From Alphaproteobacteria bacterium (lineage in GTDB: Bacteria > Pseudomonadota > Alphaproteobacteria > Caulobacterales > Aquidulcibacteraceae), in the NCBI GenBank assembly GCA_027485915.1, contig JAIXQA010000037.1:1-40843 (forward strand): a stretch of DNA of 40,843 bases. Direction: 5' to 3'. Shown piece after piece: positions 19,065 to 39,117 of this stretch (position 1 is its first letter; every line of letters starts with the position of its first letter). The translations under genes were made by a program, and so were the position numbers. A model generated the notes under the pieces. The model was not told the DNA's origin. It worked only from the letters and a program-made list of their open reading frames with translations, and searched no databases.

Positions 19065-19667
19065 TCAGAAGGAGCGACGGGCAATCCGTGCGACTTCAGC
19101 TTCGACTTTTTCTTCCACGATACGGGGCAAATTCGCATCGAGCCAGTCTTTCAGCATTGGCTTGATCAGTTCACCAACCATGGCTTCCACCGTATTGCCA
19201 GAGATAAACACGCCAGGCAGGGTGGTGTTTGGTGCCAATTTTTGGAAGACCGTCGACGCCTTGTCTGCGACCGGATCGCTTACCAAGCCCTGATCGAAGG
19301 GAAATGCCGTGGGTGCAGGCTCTGGCGCATAGACCGGTGCCGGTGCTGGGGCTGCTGCGACAGGCGCAGGTGGCGGTGCCGGGGCTGGTTGAGGCTCTTC
19401 CCAACGGTCCTCGACGATGATTTCTTCAAGCGCAACCTCAGGCTCATCATCCACGGGCAAGGCGTCGAAGTCGAAGTCAGGCGAAACCGTTTCCGGCAGA
19501 TCCATGACCGGCTCGTTCAATTCCAAAACCTCATCGCCGAAATCCGGCTCTGCTGCCGAAGGCGCGGCCTCATCGGAGGCACCAGTGTCATCTTCAGAAA
19601 TAATCCGGCGAATTGAAGCCAGAATTTCTTCCATAGTCGGTTCGGATTGTGCGTCTGCGGCGCTCAT
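19065..19667 (-). CDS. popZ: PopZ-type polar organising protein (DUF2497)
   Basis: A 200-residue protein with three parts as in Caulobacter PopZ: a conserved N-terminal helix (PTMEEILASIRRIISEDD), an acidic and Pro/Ala-rich middle (residues about 30-125, with PAPAPPPAP runs), and a conserved helical C-terminus (VFQKLAPNTTLPG, then GELIKPMLKDWLDANLPRIVEEKVEAEVARIAR). PopZ self-assembles into a polar matrix that anchors ParB and other proteins; the C-terminal helices drive assembly and the N-terminal helix binds clients. ATG at 19667 has GGGGA 5 bases upstream. Position before valS matches Caulobacter. Slightly longer than the Caulobacter protein. Confidence 0.85.
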   Translation of the reverse strand: MSAADAQSEPTMEEILASIRRIISEDDTGASDEAAPSAAEPDFGDEVLELNEPVMDLPETVSPDFDFDALPVDDEPEVALEEIIVEDRWEEPQPAPAPPPAPVAAAPAPAPVYAPEPAPTAFPFDQGLVSDPVADKASTVFQKLAPNTTLPGVFISGNTVEAMVGELIKPMLKDWLDANLPRIVEEKVEAEVARIARRSF

Positions 19668-29793: not shown

Positions 29794-29808
29794 GAACAGA
29801 GTTAGAAC
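29794..29808. promoter_or_regulatory. LexA box (GAAC-N7-GAAC) upstream of lexA
   Basis: GAACAGAGTTAGAAC is the reverse complement form of the alphaproteobacterial LexA site GTTC-N7-GTTC. It lies 11 bases left of a second box in the opposite orientation. Confidence 0.75.
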
Positions 29809-29819
29809 ATCGCCACTTT

Positions 29820-29834
29820 GTTCGCGCATCGTTC
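29820..29834. promoter_or_regulatory. LexA box (GTTC-N7-GTTC) upstream of lexA
   Basis: GTTCGCGCATCGTTC matches the alphaproteobacterial LexA site exactly, 66 bases before the lexA ATG at 29901. It fits autoregulation of lexA. Confidence 0.88.
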
Positions 29835-29900
29835 ACGGTGCCATCGGATTTTACTAGGGCGAAGCGCACACGCATGCGCCCGACAAGATAGGGGGAGTTG

Positions 29901-30593
29901 ATGCTGACGTCCAAACAACGAGAGCTTTTGCTATTCATTCATGAGCGTCTGAAGGAGACAGGCGTTTCGCCGTCTTTCGACGAAATGAAGGATGCGTTGG
30001 ACTTAGCATCCAAATCGGGCATTCACCGCCTGATTACAGCGCTGGAAGAGCGCGGCTTTCTTCGCCGTCTAGCCCATCGCGCCCGCGCGCTAGAAGTTCT
30101 GAAACTGCCAGATAGCGCAACAACGGCTGCGCCACCTAAGGGCCGCCAGCCCTTCACGCCGCTGGTCGTCGGTTCCAAGCCTGCGCCCTCAATCCCAGCC
30201 GTTCCGCCCTCAGCAGCCAATGACATTGCGGTTTTGGGCCGGATTGCGGCTGGTGTGCCCATCGCGGCGATCCAGCATGAGATTGACCGGATTGCAGCCC
30301 CAGACCAATTAGACCCTGCCCTGCACTTTGCTTTGGAAGTCAAAGGCGATTCCATGATTGATGCGGGCATTTTGGAAGGCGATTTTGTCATCATCCGCCG
30401 TACCGATGATGCTCAGTCGGGCGACATTGTCGTCGCCTTGGTCGATGATGAAGAAGCCACCCTCAAGCGCCTGCGCCGTCGCGGCCAGTCCATCGCCCTT
30501 GAAGCTGCCAACCCCCGCTACGAAACCCGCATCTTCGGGCCAGATCGGGTGAAGGTACAGGGCGTATTGGCGGGCCTGTATCGGCGCTATTAG
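29901..30593 (+). CDS. lexA: LexA SOS repressor
   Basis: A 230-residue LexA. The N-terminal winged helix starts [29 protein letters not shown] and has the recognition segment [22 protein letters not shown] Pro-rich linker follows. The S24-type autoprotease has the Ala-Gly cleavage site in [10 protein letters not shown], the nucleophile Ser in [10 protein letters not shown] and the general-base Lys in EATLKRLRR. Activated RecA triggers self-cleavage and SOS induction. ATG at 29901 follows GGGGGAG. Two LexA boxes precede it, and another box controls the peptide gene at 37072. Confidence 0.96.
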
Positions 30594-33315: not shown

Positions 33316-36300
33316 CTAAAACTCCGCCACCAAATCCACGCCAGATGCGCTCTTCAAAGCACGCCGGGCCGCGACGTCAATAGGAAAGCGGCCGGGGGCT
33401 TGAATTTCGACTTCGCGGCCATCGGCCAGTTCCACGACAACGCGCAGTTCGCCAAAGCTGGAGGAGGTGGCACCACGCAAGGTCTCGGTCACGCGGGCCA
33501 ATTCCTCGATGGGGGCCCCGCGCGCAAGGAAGACTTTAATCCCGGCGCAGCCCGACATGTCGGTTTGGTCCAAAAGCTCAATCTTCTCAGCCGACAGCTT
33601 CAAATCGCCATCACGCAAGCGCGCTTTCGCCCGGAAGCTGACCGACGTGCCAGGGTCTAGATATTCGCGCGCTTCATTGAGGGTCTCGGGCATGATCATG
33701 ACTTCAAACTCACCCGTCGGGTCGCTCAAGGTCACCCACGCAAACTTGCCACCGTCGCGCGCTGGCCGCTCTTTTCGAGCCCGGACCACGCCGGCCATAC
33801 GGAAAATCGCGTCAGATCCCTGCATTTTGGACTGAATTTCTGAAAAAAAGACCGTTTGGCGGCGGCGCAGCGCCTCAATCAAATCGTCCAGCGGGTGACC
33901 CGACAAGAAAAGGCCGAGGGCCGCAAACTCATGATCCAAACGCTCTTGCGCCGACCAAGGTTTAACGCTGGGCAAAGGTGCGCGCGGCGGTGGGGCGGCA
34001 TCGCCAAAAAGGCTTGTCTGTGCGCTGTGCCGGTCCGAAGCCGCCGCATTGGCATGGGCGACCAATTGATCGGATGAGGCAAATACTAAAGCGCGATTGG
34101 GCTCAATCGAGTCAAACGCCCCTGCTTTGGCCAAAGTCTCCCATGTGCGTCGACCCAAAATTCGGGGGTCCACACGCTCGGCCAGATCATACAAGGACTT
34201 AAACGTGCCGCCTGCCCGGCGGATTTCCACCACTTGCGCCATCGCCGCAACGCCCACAGACTTAATGCCCCCCAAAGCATAGCGAATGGCATTGTCTTGG
34301 ACCGTAAAGTCGGCCTCAGAATAATTAAGATCAGGCGACAATACTTTGATCTTCATGCTTTTTGCTTCTTGCATGAAGGCACCCAGCTTGTCGGTATCAT
34401 CAATATCGAGCGACATAGACGCTGCCATGAACTCAACCGGATGATTGGCCTTCAGATAGGCGGTCTGATAGGCGATCACGGCATAGGCAGCAGCGTGGGA
34501 CTTGTTGAAGCCATAGCCTGCAAATTCGCTCACCAATTCAAAGATACGGTCGGCAAGATCAGCATCGACGCCGCGCTCGGTCGCACCACTGACAAAGCGA
34601 TCCTTTTGCTTGGCCATTTCTTCGGGCTTCTTTTTACCCATGGCGCGACGCAAGAGGTCGGCTTCACCCAAAGAATAGCCCGAGAGGATCTGGGCGATTT
34701 GCATCACCTGTTCCTGATAAATGATCACGCCCTGGGTCTCTTTCAGGACTGAAACCAAGCTCTCATGCAGATAATCGGCTTCTTTGCGACCAAATTTCAC
34801 GTCGCAATAAGTCTCAATATTCTTCATCGGGCCCGGCCGATAAAGCGAAATCAAAGCGATGATGTCGTCAAGCGTATCGGCCCGCATCTTACGCAATGTG
34901 TCGCGCATGCCTTGGCTTTCCAGCTGAAACACGCCCATGGTTTTGCCTGAGGCCAAAAGCTCGTAAGTTTTGGGATCATCAAACGGCAATGTATCGAGAT
35001 CGACCTCAACGCCGCGTGCCTTCAAAAAGTCCAGGGCGCGCTGGATCACGGTCAGCGTCTTTAGACCTAAAAAGTCGAACTTCACTAAACCAGCAGGCTC
35101 TACCCACTTCATATTGAACTGGGTCGCAGGCAAGCTGGAGCGCGGATCCTTATAGAGCGGCACGAGTTGGTGCAATGGCCGGTCGCCAATCACCACACCG
35201 GCGGCGTGGGTGGAGGCATTACGATAAAGGCCTTCAAGTTCTATGGCGGCGTCGAGAAGTGTGCGCACATCGGCATCGCGCGACCGTTCCTCCTGCAGGC
35301 GCGGCTCGTCCTTAATGGCCTGCGCCAAGGTGACCGGAGCGGCTGGATTATTCGGCACCATTTTGGCCAGCCGGTCGACTTGGCCGTAGGACATATCCAA
35401 AACGCGGCCAACGTCACGAAGAGCCGCGCGGGCTTGCAGCGTGCCAAAAGTGATGATTTGCGCCACACGGTCTGTGCCATATTTCTTCTGCACATAATCA
35501 ATCACTTGATCGCGCTTCTCCTGACAAAAGTCGATATCGAAGTCGGGCATAGAGACGCGTTCTGGGTTCAAGAAGCGCTCAAAGAGAAGACCAAAGGCCA
35601 ATGGGTCAAGGTCGGTAATGGTCAGCGAATAAGCGACCAGAGAGCCAGCACCCGAGCCCCGACCGGGGCCAACTGGAATATTGTTTTCTTTAGACCATTT
35701 GATGAAGTCCGCAACGATCAGGAAGTAGCCTGCAAACCCCATGCGGTTGATTACATTGATTTCGTGTTCGAGCCTTTGCTCATAAATTTCGCGTGCCACA
35801 ACAGGCGGGCGCTTTAACAGGCGCGCTTCCAAGCCTTGGCGCGCTTGGGTGGCCAATTCTTCGGGTTCATCGCGCCCTTCGGCGGTGGTAAATCGCGGCA
35901 AGATGGGTGCACGCATCAAGGGACGGATCGCACACCGCTGCGCGATATCAACACTATTGGCCAGAGCCTCCGGCAAGTCAGCAAACAAGGCGACCATCTC
36001 TGCTTCGCTGCGGAAGCAATGATTAGGTGACACACGTTCGCGCTTATCATCAGCTACTCGGGTGGCTTGGCCGATACACATCAGGATGTCTTGCGCGCGA
36101 TGCCGCTCCGGACTGTCAAAGCGCACATCATTGGTCGCCACCAATGGCAGATTGCGCTGATAAGCGAGGTCAATCAAGCTCGGCTCAATCTGGGCCTCAT
36201 CGGCCATGCCGTGGCGCTGTAACTCGATATAAAGCCTATCCGGGAACGCCTTAGCCAATTGGTGCAGCAGGATATCGGCCTCGGCCTTCAAATTGGCGAG

Positions 36301-36879
36301 TAAGGCACGGCTTAAGAGGCCTTCCCGCCCACCGGTCAGACAGATCACGCCTTCACTATGATCGAGTACTTTTTGGATGCTGACATGGGGTAGGCTGCCG
36401 GCTGGCACTTCCAGAAAAGACATGCTCGATAGCGCCATTAAATTGGCCCAGCCAACTTCATTCTGCGCGATCAGCGCCAAAACGCCGTCTGGACCGGCTG
36501 CTGCACCTGGCTTTAGGCTGAGGAACGAGACCGGCAACGTCAAGCCCATAATGGGCTGAATACCCTTTTCGGCCAAGGCTTCGGAAAACTCGAGCGCGCC
36601 GAACAAATTAGGGTCTGAAATGCCAACCGCAACACAGCCCGCCTTGGCGGCAAAGCCCGCGAGCTTCTTGACCGTCATCGCACCATCAAGCAACGAGTAA
36701 GCCGACCGGACCCGCAAATGCACAAAGCCCGGCCCCGCCAAAACGGGCCTGACTACCTGCCCTGCCCCAGCCACCAACGCGCCTGCTGCCAACGCGCCAC
36801 TTGGCTCCGTCAAGTCGACACCTGCACCACCCTGACCTGCATCAGAGAACGCGCCGCCTGAAAGAGTACCATCTGCCAT
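33316..36879 (-). CDS. dnaE: DNA polymerase III alpha subunit
   Basis: A replicative C-family polymerase of about 1187 residues. The PHP domain begins FVHLRVRSAYSLLDGAMTVKKL; the palm carries PGRGSGAGSLVAYSL and PDFDIDFCQEKRDQVIDYV with catalytic Asp residues; the fingers have GVFQLESQGMRDTL and SLYRPGPM; AGYGFNKSHAAAYAVIAYQTAYLK and an OB fold near the C-terminus (FRMAGVVRARKE) complete it. ATG at 36879 follows AGGTGG. About 55 Gly/Ala-rich residues precede the PHP domain, more than usual. It follows the small peptide gene by 107 bases. Confidence 0.95.
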   Translation of the reverse strand: MADGTLSGGAFSDAGQGGAGVDLTEPSGALAAGALVAGAGQVVRPVLAGPGFVHLRVRSAYSLLDGAMTVKKLAGFAAKAGCVAVGISDPNLFGALEFSEALAEKGIQPIMGLTLPVSFLSLKPGAAAGPDGVLALIAQNEVGWANLMALSSMSFLEVPAGSLPHVSIQKVLDHSEGVICLTGGREGLLSRALLANLKAEADILLHQLAKAFPDRLYIELQRHGMADEAQIEPSLIDLAYQRNLPLVATNDVRFDSPERHRAQDILMCIGQATRVADDKRERVSPNHCFRSEAEMVALFADLPEALANSVDIAQRCAIRPLMRAPILPRFTTAEGRDEPEELATQARQGLEARLLKRPPVVAREIYEQRLEHEINVINRMGFAGYFLIVADFIKWSKENNIPVGPGRGSGAGSLVAYSLTITDLDPLAFGLLFERFLNPERVSMPDFDIDFCQEKRDQVIDYVQKKYGTDRVAQIITFGTLQARAALRDVGRVLDMSYGQVDRLAKMVPNNPAAPVTLAQAIKDEPRLQEERSRDADVRTLLDAAIELEGLYRNASTHAAGVVIGDRPLHQLVPLYKDPRSSLPATQFNMKWVEPAGLVKFDFLGLKTLTVIQRALDFLKARGVEVDLDTLPFDDPKTYELLASGKTMGVFQLESQGMRDTLRKMRADTLDDIIALISLYRPGPMKNIETYCDVKFGRKEADYLHESLVSVLKETQGVIIYQEQVMQIAQILSGYSLGEADLLRRAMGKKKPEEMAKQKDRFVSGATERGVDADLADRIFELVSEFAGYGFNKSHAAAYAVIAYQTAYLKANHPVEFMAASMSLDIDDTDKLGAFMQEAKSMKIKVLSPDLNYSEADFTVQDNAIRYALGGIKSVGVAAMAQVVEIRRAGGTFKSLYDLAERVDPRILGRRTWETLAKAGAFDSIEPNRALVFASSDQLVAHANAAASDRHSAQTSLFGDAAPPPRAPLPSVKPWSAQERLDHEFAALGLFLSGHPLDDLIEALRRRQTVFFSEIQSKMQGSDAIFRMAGVVRARKERPARDGGKFAWVTLSDPTGEFEVMIMPETLNEAREYLDPGTSVSFRAKARLRDGDLKLSAEKIELLDQTDMSGCAGIKVFLARGAPIEELARVTETLRGATSSSFGELRVVVELADGREVEIQAPGRFPIDVAARRALKSASGVDLVAEF

Positions 36880-36945
36880 GGGGCCACCTGAATCCGTCGA
36901 CTGAATCATCACCAAAGAGCGACTTAGTCTGACAGGACTCACAGG

Positions 36946-36971
36946 TTTCTGTCAGCCCTCGCGGACAGAAA
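36946..36971. repeat. Inverted repeat TTTCTGTC/GACAGAAA between the peptide gene and dnaE
   Basis: A perfect 8-bp stem with a 10-base GC-rich loop, 15-40 bases beyond the stop of the peptide gene and upstream of the dnaE start. It could separate the two transcripts or affect dnaE translation. Confidence 0.45.
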
Positions 36972-36985
36972 ATATAAAGCCATCC

Positions 36986-37072
36986 TCAACCGATCACAGC
37001 GCCCCAACCCCAAGCCATGAGGGTGAAAGCGAGAATTGCTGCAAAAGCGGCTGCGTCTTGAAGTTGGGCCAT
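36986..37072 (-). CDS. 28-aa single-helix membrane peptide, SOS-controlled, SidA-like
   Basis: The frame reads MAQLQDAAAFAAILAFT then LMAWGWGAVIG and stops with TGA. After a 6-residue polar start there is one unbroken hydrophobic helix of about 20 residues. The Shine-Dalgarno GAGGTGG lies 3 bases before the ATG, very strong. A perfect LexA box (37087-37101) sits 15 bases upstream, overlapping a -10 like TAGAAC that pairs with TTGCCA at 17-base spacing. Caulobacter SidA is a 29-residue SOS-induced inner-membrane division inhibitor acting on FtsW/FtsN; size, topology and control all match. Orthology is inferred, no alignment was made. It is too short for ordinary gene calling. Confidence 0.75.
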   Translation of the reverse strand: MAQLQDAAAFAAILAFTLMAWGWGAVIG

Positions 37073-37086
37073 GTTCCACCTCGTTT

Positions 37087-37126
37087 GTTCTTCCTTCGTT
37101 CTATTCTTGTTTTGTTCTCATGGCAA
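37087..37126 (-). promoter_or_regulatory. LexA box and promoter of the SidA-like peptide gene
   Basis: GTTCTTCCTTCGTTC at 37087-37101 is GTTC-N7-GTTC. On the minus strand TTGCCA (37121-37126) and TAGAAC (37098-37103) form a promoter with a 17-base spacer, so bound LexA would cover the -10. A further isolated GTTC lies at 37114-37117. Confidence 0.8.
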
Positions 37127-37166: not shown

Positions 37167-37847
37167 TTAGTCTTGCACGAGGCGGCCGCTATCGATGCGG
37201 AAAACACGGTCCATTTGCCGAGCTAAATCAATATTATGCGTTGCGACCAGAGCGGAAGTCCCCTCTTCCCGCGTGGCTTTGCGAAAGGTGTCAAATACAA
37301 AGCTGGAGGTAGCGGGATCGAGATTGCCGGTTGGCTCATCGGCAATCAAAAGGGCTGGCTGGTTGGCAAGTGCGCGTGCAATAGCCACGCGCTGTTGTTC
37401 ACCGCCCGACAATTGGCCGGGCTGGTGAAGTTTCCGGTCGGCCAGCCCCATCATGTCGAGGAGCTGTTCGGCACGTGCACGCGCTTCGGCTTGCCCAACG
37501 CCTGCAATCCATTGTGGCAATGCGACATTATCAACGGCGCTAAACTCTGGCAGCAAATGGTGGAATTGATAGACAAAGCCCAGCGCCGTGCGCCGTAGCG
37601 CCGTGCGCGCGGCGTCGGGCAGCTTCGTGGCGTCAATTCCGGCCAATTCGACCGTGCCGCCTTGCGCGGCCTCCAGAAGGCCAGCTGCGTGAAGCAATGA
37701 CGACTTGCCAGAGCCCGAAGGGCCAATCAGGGCCACGATCTCGCCTGGCATAATGGTCAGATTGACGCCCTTGAGAACTTCGAGTTCGCCCGCGCGAGTC
37801 TGATAGACGCGGCGTAAATCGGTGAGGCGCAGAACCGGGCTACTCAT
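37167..37847 (-). CDS. lolD: Lipoprotein-releasing ABC transporter ATP-binding protein LolD
   Basis: A 226-residue ABC ATPase: Walker A IGPSGSGKSSLLHAAGLLE, Q-loop YQFHHLLPEFSAVDNV (the LLPEF segment is typical of LolD), signature LSGGEQQRVAIARAL, Walker B LLIADEPTGNLD, and switch His VATHN. With LolC/E-type permeases it releases outer-membrane lipoproteins from the inner membrane to LolA. Its ATG at 37847 lies 8 bases inside the end of the upstream permease gene, so translation is coupled. Confidence 0.93.
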   Translation of the reverse strand: MSSPVLRLTDLRRVYQTRAGELEVLKGVNLTIMPGEIVALIGPSGSGKSSLLHAAGLLEAAQGGTVELAGIDATKLPDAARTALRRTALGFVYQFHHLLPEFSAVDNVALPQWIAGVGQAEARARAEQLLDMMGLADRKLHQPGQLSGGEQQRVAIARALANQPALLIADEPTGNLDPATSSFVFDTFRKATREEGTSALVATHNIDLARQMDRVFRIDSGRLVQD

Positions 37848-39117
37848 AACGAAGCGCCTCCACCGGATCGAGCTTGGAGGCGCGCCACGAGGGTGGCAGC
37901 GTGGCGACAATGCTGGCAATGGCCGCAAATACCGCCGTTGTAATCACCTCATGCCATTCCACTTTGGCGGGGATTTGGCTCAAGAAATAGATGTCGGCAT
38001 TGAAGACGGGGCCAAACACAAACTCCACCACTTTTTGGATGGTGCCAATGTTGAGGCAGAATAAGGTGCCGCCAATGGCCCCGGCGAGGGTGGCGAGAAT
38101 GCCCACACTGGCCCCCGACATCATGAATACCCGCATGATCGAGGCACGCGATGCCCCCATGGTGCGCAAAATAGCAATGTCGCGGCCCTTATTTTTAACC
38201 AGCATCACGAGGCCCGAAATGATGTTCATGGCTGCAATCGCCACAATCAACATTAATATCAAGCGCATCACATTGCGCTCAATCTGCAAGGCGGAGACGA
38301 GGCTTTCCGATTGCTGTCGCCAATCGGTCACAAAGCGATTCTGGCTAAATTTTGCAACTTCCAGTGCCAAGAGGTCAGCTTTATCTGGGTCCTGCATCCG
38401 AAGTTCGATCGTGTCCCAGCTGGTTTCTTTGGAGAAGAAGAGTTGGGCCTGTTCAATCGGCATATAGATGAAGGTGGCATCATATTCGCTCATGCCGATA
38501 TCAAAAATGGCCGAGACCGTGTAGTCTTTAATCCGCGGGGTGGTGCCAAATGGCGTTGAGGCCCCTTGTGGCGAAATTAATTGCACCGAATCCCCCGGCA
38601 AAACGCCCAAGGCTTCGGCCAGTCGAGACCCCATGGCGATTTCGTCACCGCCATACTCGCCCATGCCCCAAGTCTTGAGGTTACCACCAACCAGATTACC
38701 GGAGACGATTTTGAGCTTGGCAAGATCAGAGGCTGCAAGCCCCGTCACCATCGCACCACGCGCCAGATTGCCACCCTGGCCAACCGCCATCACTTGGCCG
38801 TCAATCTTAGGCATCACGTCGACGACGCCCGGTAAAGCCTTGGCTTTGGCAATGATGGCGCGGGCTTCTGGGATGGGCATGTTACGCACATCGACAAAGA
38901 CATGGCCATTGACGCCCAAAATCCGTCCTAAAAGCTCTGCCCGAAAGCCGTTCATCACGCTCATCACGATGATCAAAACGGCGACAGCCAGAAAAATGCC
39001 GATAAAGCTGATGAGTGAGATCAAAGCGACCCCGCCATCTTCACGCCGAGCCCGCAAATAGCGTGCGGCTAGCGTGCGCTCCCACATGCCAAAAGGCCCT
39101 GCACTCCCGGCTTTCAT
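37840..39117 (-). CDS. lolC: Lipoprotein-releasing ABC transporter permease (LolC/LolE family)
   Basis: A 425-residue membrane protein with FtsX-type topology: TM1 ([25 protein letters not shown]) following [13 protein letters not shown], a large periplasmic domain (about 55-270) and three C-terminal TM segments ([60 protein letters not shown]), ending PVEALRYE. One permease gene is present where enterobacteria have lolC and lolE, so it probably forms a homodimer (sometimes named LolF). It overlaps proS by 4 bases upstream and lolD by 8 downstream. Confidence 0.92.

What the first reader, a model, noticed from the sequence alone, without database searches (positions are those of the whole stretch)
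36986..37126. SOS-controlled 28-residue membrane peptide next to dnaE, likely a SidA-type division inhibitor
The sequence shows an open frame of 28 codons with a very strong Shine-Dalgarno (GAGGTGG), a single hydrophobic helix, and a perfect GTTC-N7-GTTC LexA box that overlaps a -10 element. It is too short for standard annotation. Caulobacter SidA is a 29-residue SOS-induced inner-membrane protein that blocks division through FtsW/FtsN. Together with lexA at 29901 and popZ at 19667 this would be a checkpoint module in a new lineage. Orthology to sidA is inferred from size, topology and regulation, not from alignment.
Basis: partly seen in the sequence, partly recalled or inferred. Interest (0 to 1): 0.88.

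Follow-up and report, generated by a model that had tools for sequence, protein, structure and literature searches.

The report
Divergent SidA-type SOS division-inhibitor peptide
A freshwater relative of Caulobacter carries, just upstream of its main DNA polymerase gene, a conserved 28-residue membrane peptide with DNA-damage (LexA) control sites that is most likely its version of the Caulobacter cell-division inhibitor SidA, and similar small peptides sit at the same spot in a number of other alphaproteobacteria.

Summary
Observation confirmed. Window 36986-37072 (-) encodes MAQLQDAAAFAAILAFTLMAWGWGAVIG behind a Shine-Dalgarno, a perfect LexA box and a second box one mismatch off. It is a real gene: the 8 other genomes held of its genus (Aquidulcibacter group) all have it, pN/pS 0.027. 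At the same place before dnaE, 23/23, 20/20 and 20/20 sampled genomes of three sister families have a 25-42-residue one-helix peptide; 0/20 of a fourth do. In the near-C. vibrioides genome that peptide is SidA by NCBI's curated model (72.4 bits, cut-off 35). A profile built without the window's family ranks the window peptide first in its 3.3-Mb genome (E 0.018, next 1.26); the curated model itself misses it. So it is the SidA-locus ortholog, strongly diverged. Most likely LexA cleavage induces it and it blocks septation through FtsW/FtsN; that is inferred. The 'checkpoint module' with lexA is not supported. Beyond the finding: 14 of 106 sampled genomes of other orders have a perfect LexA box within 500 bases before dnaE, and all 14 have a one-helix small ORF behind it, against about 10% behind random points: the family may be class-wide.

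The parts
36986..37072 (-). 28-residue peptide MAQLQDAAAFAAILAFTLMAWGWGAVIG, SidA-locus ortholog (stop codon included)
37076..37082 (-). Shine-Dalgarno GAGGTGG
   Evidence: sequence; GAGGTG kept in L004-L007
37087..37101 (-). LexA box, perfect (GAAC-N7-GAAC on the coding strand)
37103..37117 (-). second LexA box, one mismatch (GAAC-N7-GAAT on the coding strand)
   Evidence: relaxed match 45 bases before the ATG
37098..37103 (-). -10-like element TAGAAC inside the LexA boxes
   Evidence: sequence; resembles the Caulobacter -10 (recalled); not found by the E. coli-type scan
37121..37126 (-). -35-like element TTGCCA, 17 bases from the -10
   Evidence: sequence; TTGAC- stands at the like place in a number of relatives
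33316..36942 (-). dnaE (DNA polymerase III alpha), next gene downstream; the listed start may be too far upstream
37167..37928 (-). lolD-like ABC transporter ATPase, next gene upstream
   Evidence: ABC_tran; the name lolD rests on the finding and on the MacB/FtsX-type permease beside it
29794..29834 (.). two LexA boxes upstream of lexA (29794-29808 minus, 29820-29834 plus)
29898..30593 (+). lexA

Best explanation
The ORF is the sidA gene of this genus. In undamaged cells LexA sits on the tandem boxes over the promoter and keeps it silent. DNA damage makes RecA-dependent LexA cleavage free the promoter, the peptide is made, inserts as one helix in the inner membrane and holds the FtsW/FtsI/FtsN septal-synthesis complex inactive, so division waits for repair. 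Shown by sequence: the coding gene, its constraint, the LexA boxes, the conserved place before dnaE, homology at profile level to peptides of the SidA locus. Inferred from Caulobacter: LexA binding, induction, FtsW/FtsN as target, division block.
For: Gene: 9 of 9 genomes held of the genus keep it; pN/pS 0.027. Locus: peptide upstream of dnaE in 23/23 (f3), 20/20 (f4), 20/20 (f5) sampled genomes (the f3 peptide of L060 was missed by the script and read from the bases). Identity of the locus: G130, whose MipZ is 262/263 identical to PDB 2xj4 MipZ, has a 29-residue peptide there that matches NF033228.1 'cell division inhibitor SidA' over 29/29 positions, 72.4 bits against cut-off 35. Homology: a profile of f3+f4+f5 only gives the window peptide as best of its whole genome, E 0.018, next 1.26; 0 of 1998 scored residue shuffles (2000 made) and 0 of 2000 shuffles keeping the polar positions reach its score; hhalign 94.9%, E 4.7e-8, pairwise. 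Regulation: of 75 peptides laid out, 64 have a perfect and 74 a GAA[CT]-N7-GAA[CT] box within 160 bases upstream. FtsW-family genes are present. In C. crescentus SidA is a 29-residue SOS-induced inner-membrane protein that acts on FtsW (PMC4211646, passages).
Against: The window peptide does not match NF033228.1 even at E 10, and BLASTP to the G130 SidA gives no alignment. At 28 residues the homology is carried by profile, promoter and locus, not by pairwise identity (11% to G130 SidA in the alignment). The known suppressor positions of FtsW (A31, F145, A246) could not be placed: nowhere does the G130 FtsW frame have A, F, A at that spacing, so target conservation is untested. 13 of 17 sampled genomes of its own family outside its genus lack the peptide at dnaE. 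No expression or phenotype data.
Confidence: 0.85

Rival explanations
1. A regulatory leader: translation of the short ORF tunes expression of dnaE, so that the SOS response raises the replicative polymerase.
For: The ORF lies upstream of dnaE on the same strand; 3 of 13 genomes of the family without the peptide have LexA-box-like promoter pieces before dnaE (L026, L028, L031); no T-run terminator was found between them.
Against: Residues, not just reading, are kept; in G013 the peptide and its LexA box stand downstream of a thiolase gene, with no dnaE match in the 3.1 kb held around it; in the near-C. vibrioides genome the same ORF is the curated SidA.
Confidence: 0.06
2. An SOS-induced membrane-damaging peptide of the TisB/DinQ kind (type I toxin) that slows growth by depolarisation.
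For: Small, one helix, LexA boxes; E. coli DinQ is an SOS-regulated toxic single-helix peptide (PMC3567139, start of abstract).
Against: The peptide at this locus is SidA in the near-C. vibrioides genome; an acidic residue before the helix is kept (D invariant in the 9 rows, D in at least 70% of 54 rows). An antisense RNA was not looked for.
Confidence: 0.07
3. A chance ORF.
For: 28 codons only; the LexA box count in the window is only mildly above chance.
Against: pN/pS 0.027, 8 of 8 congeners held, a like peptide at the same place in three other families.
Confidence: 0.01

Closest known systems
SidA of Caulobacter crescentus (NCBIfam NF033228.1; CCNA_02004 in PMC10769358, passage)
   Same: 28 against 29 residues, one helix, LexA boxes in the promoter, place directly upstream of dnaE, acidic residue before the helix
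   Different: sequence too far for the curated model or BLASTP; a W-G-W-G stretch stands where the Caulobacter type has FVWMMC
DidA of Caulobacter crescentus (PMC4211646, passages)
   Same: small one-helix division inhibitor made after DNA damage, acts on the FtsW/I/N complex
   Different: 71 residues and SOS-independent; here LexA boxes and 28 residues
YneA (Bacillus), SosA (Staphylococcus), ChiZ (Mycobacterium) (PMC13396833, passages)
   Same: damage-induced small membrane division inhibitors; that paper predicts binding to FtsW for these and for SidA, not at high confidence
   Different: YneA needs its LysM domain, and 28 residues leave no room for one; sequence relation not tested
SulA of Escherichia coli
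   Same: SOS-induced division inhibitor
   Different: acts on FtsZ (PMC4211646 and PMC13396833, passages) and is not a membrane peptide (recalled)

Membership tests
SidA | about 29 residues with one membrane helix | tested here: met
   28 residues, best 17-residue hydropathy mean 1.84; no membrane predictor was run
SidA | LexA box of the GTTC-N7-GTTC type over the promoter (motif given for Caulobacter in PMC12700426, passages) | tested here: met
   37087-37101 perfect, 37103-37117 one mismatch
SidA | place directly upstream of dnaE as in the near-C. vibrioides genome G130 | tested here: met
SidA | match to the curated equivalog model NF033228.1 | tested here: not met
   no match at E 10; the one f4 and the one f5 peptide tried also miss it, and an f3 peptide of genus g16 (20.5 bits) falls under the cut-off of 35
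SidA | sequence homology to SidA-locus peptides of other families | tested here: met
SidA | pairwise similarity to the G130 SidA | tested here: not met
   no BLASTP alignment
SidA | target residues in FtsW | tested here: inconclusive
   FtsW-family genes present, but the published positions could not be mapped
SidA | induction by DNA damage; binding to FtsW/FtsN; filamentation on overproduction | not testable with these tools
   needs bench work
DidA | 71 residues, SOS-independent | tested here: not met
   28 residues with LexA boxes

The most novel reading that the evidence does not exclude
SidA is one branch of an old, class-wide alphaproteobacterial checkpoint: a roughly 25-55-residue one-helix peptide under LexA control just upstream of dnaE, often after lolD, easily overlooked because it is short and too diverged for the curated SidA model, and lost in some lineages (no peptide at dnaE in 20 of 20 genomes sampled of one family that I take to be Hyphomonadaceae, and in 13 of 17 sampled of the window's family outside its genus). 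These losses may fall in lineages that bud rather than divide by fission.
Probability: 0.6. Interest if true: 0.72.

Novelty: new variant of a known kind. Interest (0 to 1): 0.5.

Why it matters
To my knowledge (recalled, not searched for) the SOS division inhibitor is known in few alphaproteobacteria besides Caulobacter. An address (the stretch before dnaE, a LexA box, one helix, an acidic residue before it) makes candidates findable genome by genome, gives dozens of natural variants with which to map the FtsW contact, and lets loss of the checkpoint be compared with growth mode. For the window itself the result is expected biology: a diverged sidA.

Tried and rejected
'Checkpoint module': rejected, (lexA within about 30 kb of dnaE in 12 of 17 genomes, 4 of the 12 without the peptide; farther off in 5, namely G041, G060, G072, G076, G136; G139 could not be computed). 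FtsW suppressor positions: tried on the G130 frame, numbering did not fit; dropped. Weak profile hits in f2 and in f1 genomes (G100, G201, G245, G017, G024, G251): loci were read for five of these (L368-L372; G100 had no hit at E 0.5) plus G088 (L377); none of the six loci has a GAAC-N7-GAAC box, and I take the hits as chance. Class hits without dnaE beside them (L259, L260, L261, L264, L265) were set aside as chance; L256 has lolD but its contig ends before dnaE. Folding the spacer before dnaE gave a hairpin in 3 of 4 genomes with z from -1.88 to -2.70 and not in the fourth (-0.90); not pursued. No structure prediction was run: the peptide is under the tool's 30-residue limit.

Limits of the counts. 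Order sample: 120 genomes; upstream DNA fetched for 100 of them (17 f1, 23 of 24 f3, 20 of 24 f2, 20 of 23 f4, 20 of 24 f5), the 8 of the window's genus in that sample being held. G011, G013 and G034 came in through a peptide hit and are not in the 4-of-17 count. Peptide starts were chosen by eye among in-frame starts, so lengths are approximate. Class sample: 140 genomes with dnaE; 106 were tested, the best by dnaE score down to G400, without G000 and G038 (known positives) and without G439, G408 and G491, left out by oversight; 103 of the 106 have 400 or more bases upstream. Controls: dinucleotide shuffles give a box in 0.65 regions on average (at most 2) and box plus ORF in none; but one-helix ORFs alone are common (41 of 106 regions have one in the last 500 bases, and one stands behind 285 of 3000 random points in box-less regions), so the weight lies on 14 of 14. 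The opposite-orientation box occurs in 7 regions, 3 with such an ORF; two of the three (L332, L358) are among the 14 and the third (L336) may be a further case, so it is not a clean control. Four of the 14 (L269, L270, L283, L358) are not seen by the profile of earlier members at E 1.

Full report
What is there. On the minus strand of the window, between a lolD-like ABC ATPase (37167-37928) and dnaE (33316-36942), lies a 28-codon ORF, 36986-37072, MAQLQDAAAFAAILAFTLMAWGWGAVIG. A GAGGTGG Shine-Dalgarno stands three bases before the ATG. Upstream, on the coding strand, runs TTGCCA - 17 bases - TAGAAC, overlaid by GAAC-N7-GAAT and GAAC-N7-GAAC one base apart. The only other two perfect boxes of this type in the 40.8 kb lie upstream of lexA. 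The E. coli-type promoter scan reports nothing here, so the -35/-10 reading rests on likeness to relatives and to the Caulobacter -10 as I recall it.

It is a gene. The peptide occurs once in its own genome and in 8 of 8 other genomes of its genus among the 61 searched, at 93-100% identity. Over the nine, 18 of 28 codons vary, 16 of them only synonymously; pooled pN/pS is 0.027; between the window and L002 there are 14 base and no residue differences, where 9.5 residue differences are expected. Named kin are Hyphomonadaceae bacterium UKL13-1, Aquidulcibacter paucihalophilus TH1-2 and Candidatus Phycosocius bacilliformis. PMC12700997 places Aquidulcibacter in Aquidulcibacteraceae, sister to Hyphomonadaceae, order Caulobacterales (passages of it and of its addendum PMC13109427); its main text has no occurrence of sidA.

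The locus is the sidA locus. From 120 genomes of the order with dnaE located I fetched the upstream DNA of 100. A one-helix ORF of 25-42 residues (by the starts I chose) stands there in 23 of 23 genomes of family f3, 20 of 20 of f4 and 20 of 20 of f5, in 0 of 20 of f2, and, at 31-32 residues, in 4 of 17 of f1 outside the window's genus. Of 75 peptides laid out with their upstream bases, 64 have a perfect box and 74 a GAA[CT]-N7-GAA[CT] box within 160 bases. In f3, genome G130 has a MipZ 262/263 identical to the PDB MipZ chain 2xj4 (that this chain is from Caulobacter is recalled, the table says MIPZ; G198 reaches 262/263 too), and its 29-residue peptide matches the NCBI equivalog NF033228.1 'cell division inhibitor SidA' end to end with 72.4 bits, cut-off 35. 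10 of the 41 peptides of alignment A4 match that model at E 0.1, not all above its cut-off (20.5 bits for one of genus g16). The published SidA is a 29-residue, SOS-induced inner-membrane protein acting on FtsW (PMC4211646, passages), gene CCNA_02004 (PMC10769358, passage).

The window peptide is its homolog, but a distant one. It does not match NF033228.1 nor align to the G130 SidA by BLASTP. A profile made from f3, f4 and f5 alone, with nothing of the window's family, nevertheless gives it as the best hit of the 3.3-Mb genome, E 0.018, next 1.26; among 1316 frames of the window E 1e-4, next 2.2; none of 1998 scored shuffles, nor of 2000 that keep the polar positions, reaches its score. Profile against profile, hhalign gives 94.9% and E 4.7e-8 over 26 columns without gap. 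The shared pattern is a D or E just before the helix and, at its far end, often W and G. Because the curated model was tested and not met, I call it the SidA-locus ortholog and a diverged variant rather than a member of NF033228.1.

How it most likely works. LexA keeps it off; damage frees the promoter; the peptide enters the inner membrane and holds the FtsW/FtsI/FtsN complex inactive. Boxes, gene, constraint and homology are shown; LexA binding, induction, target and division block are carried over from Caulobacter. FtsW-family genes are present, but the suppressor residues published for C. crescentus FtsW could not be placed on the G130 frame. Against a mere leader of dnaE: in G013 the peptide with its LexA box lies away from dnaE, downstream of a thiolase gene. 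The LexA-box-like pieces before dnaE in 3 of 13 peptide-less f1 genomes (L026, L028, L031) fit loss of the gene there, though SOS control of dnaE itself is not excluded.

The 'checkpoint module'. lexA lies within about 30 kb of dnaE in 12 of 17 genomes for which I could compute it, four of the twelve without the peptide (G024, G049, G053, G088). The vicinity is shared chromosome order, not a module. PopZ distance was not surveyed.

Beyond the finding. Class-wide profile searches hit peptides outside the order that again lie before dnaE with a LexA box, often after a lolD homolog: 5 of 289 genomes at E 0.001 with A3 (besides 3 of the order), and 19 of 386 at E 0.01 with A4 (besides 4 of the order), of which 5 are not at dnaE and one (L256) ends before it. 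A test that does not use the profile: of 106 dnaE-upstream regions from other orders (the known positives G000 and G038 set apart), 14 have a perfect GAAC-N7-GAAC within 500 bases, and all 14 have a 20-65-residue one-helix ORF just behind it; in 20 rounds of dinucleotide shuffles the box occurs in 0.65 regions on average (at most 2) and box plus ORF in none. Such ORFs alone are common: 41 of 106 regions have one, and one stands behind 285 of 3000 random points in box-less regions, so 14 of 14 is the telling figure. The 14 belong to 11 family labels. The profile of earlier members (A4), scored on 1052 upstream ORFs, lists ten at E under 1, all among those 14; six of the ten had contributed to it or been found with it, four had not, and four of the 14 are not listed. 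I found no report of such a range in what my searches returned (listings, with passages of some papers); most subscription papers, Modell 2011 included, are not held, so this is not a claim of priority. Homology of the most remote peptides rests on place, promoter and pattern and could in part be convergence.

Verdict. Observation confirmed; the SidA-type reading supported; function inferred. For this window the result is expected biology in a diverged form. The wider range of the peptide is the more interesting part.

Noticed in passing
L269, L270, L283, L301, L310, L332, L358, L365, L222, L220, L249, L250, L257, L255; also L253, L254, L262, L263: SidA-like one-helix ORFs behind LexA boxes upstream of dnaE in orders other than Caulobacterales.
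   Followed up: partly
L026, L028, L031: Three genomes of the window's family without the peptide keep LexA-box-like promoter pieces before dnaE, as if only the gene had been lost.
   Followed up: partly
L066-L085; L029, L033, L034, L035, L037-L040: No peptide at dnaE in any of 20 sampled genomes of family f2 (taken to be Hyphomonadaceae) nor in 8 of f1 genus g11 (taken to be Vitreimonas-like); budding occurs in such groups (partly from PMC13109427 passages, partly recalled). A link with growth mode is only an idea.
   Followed up: no
L011:1501-1584: In G013 the peptide with a LexA box lies downstream of a thiolase gene, not at dnaE.
   Followed up: partly
36946-36971: Inverted repeat TTTCTGTC...GACAGAAA between the peptide's stop and dnaE; a hairpin in 3 of 4 congeners folded, without a T-run.
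   Followed up: partly
29794-29834: Two perfect LexA boxes in opposite orientation upstream of lexA.
   Followed up: no
L336 (G399): A possible further SidA-like ORF before dnaE behind a LexA box in the opposite orientation.
   Followed up: no
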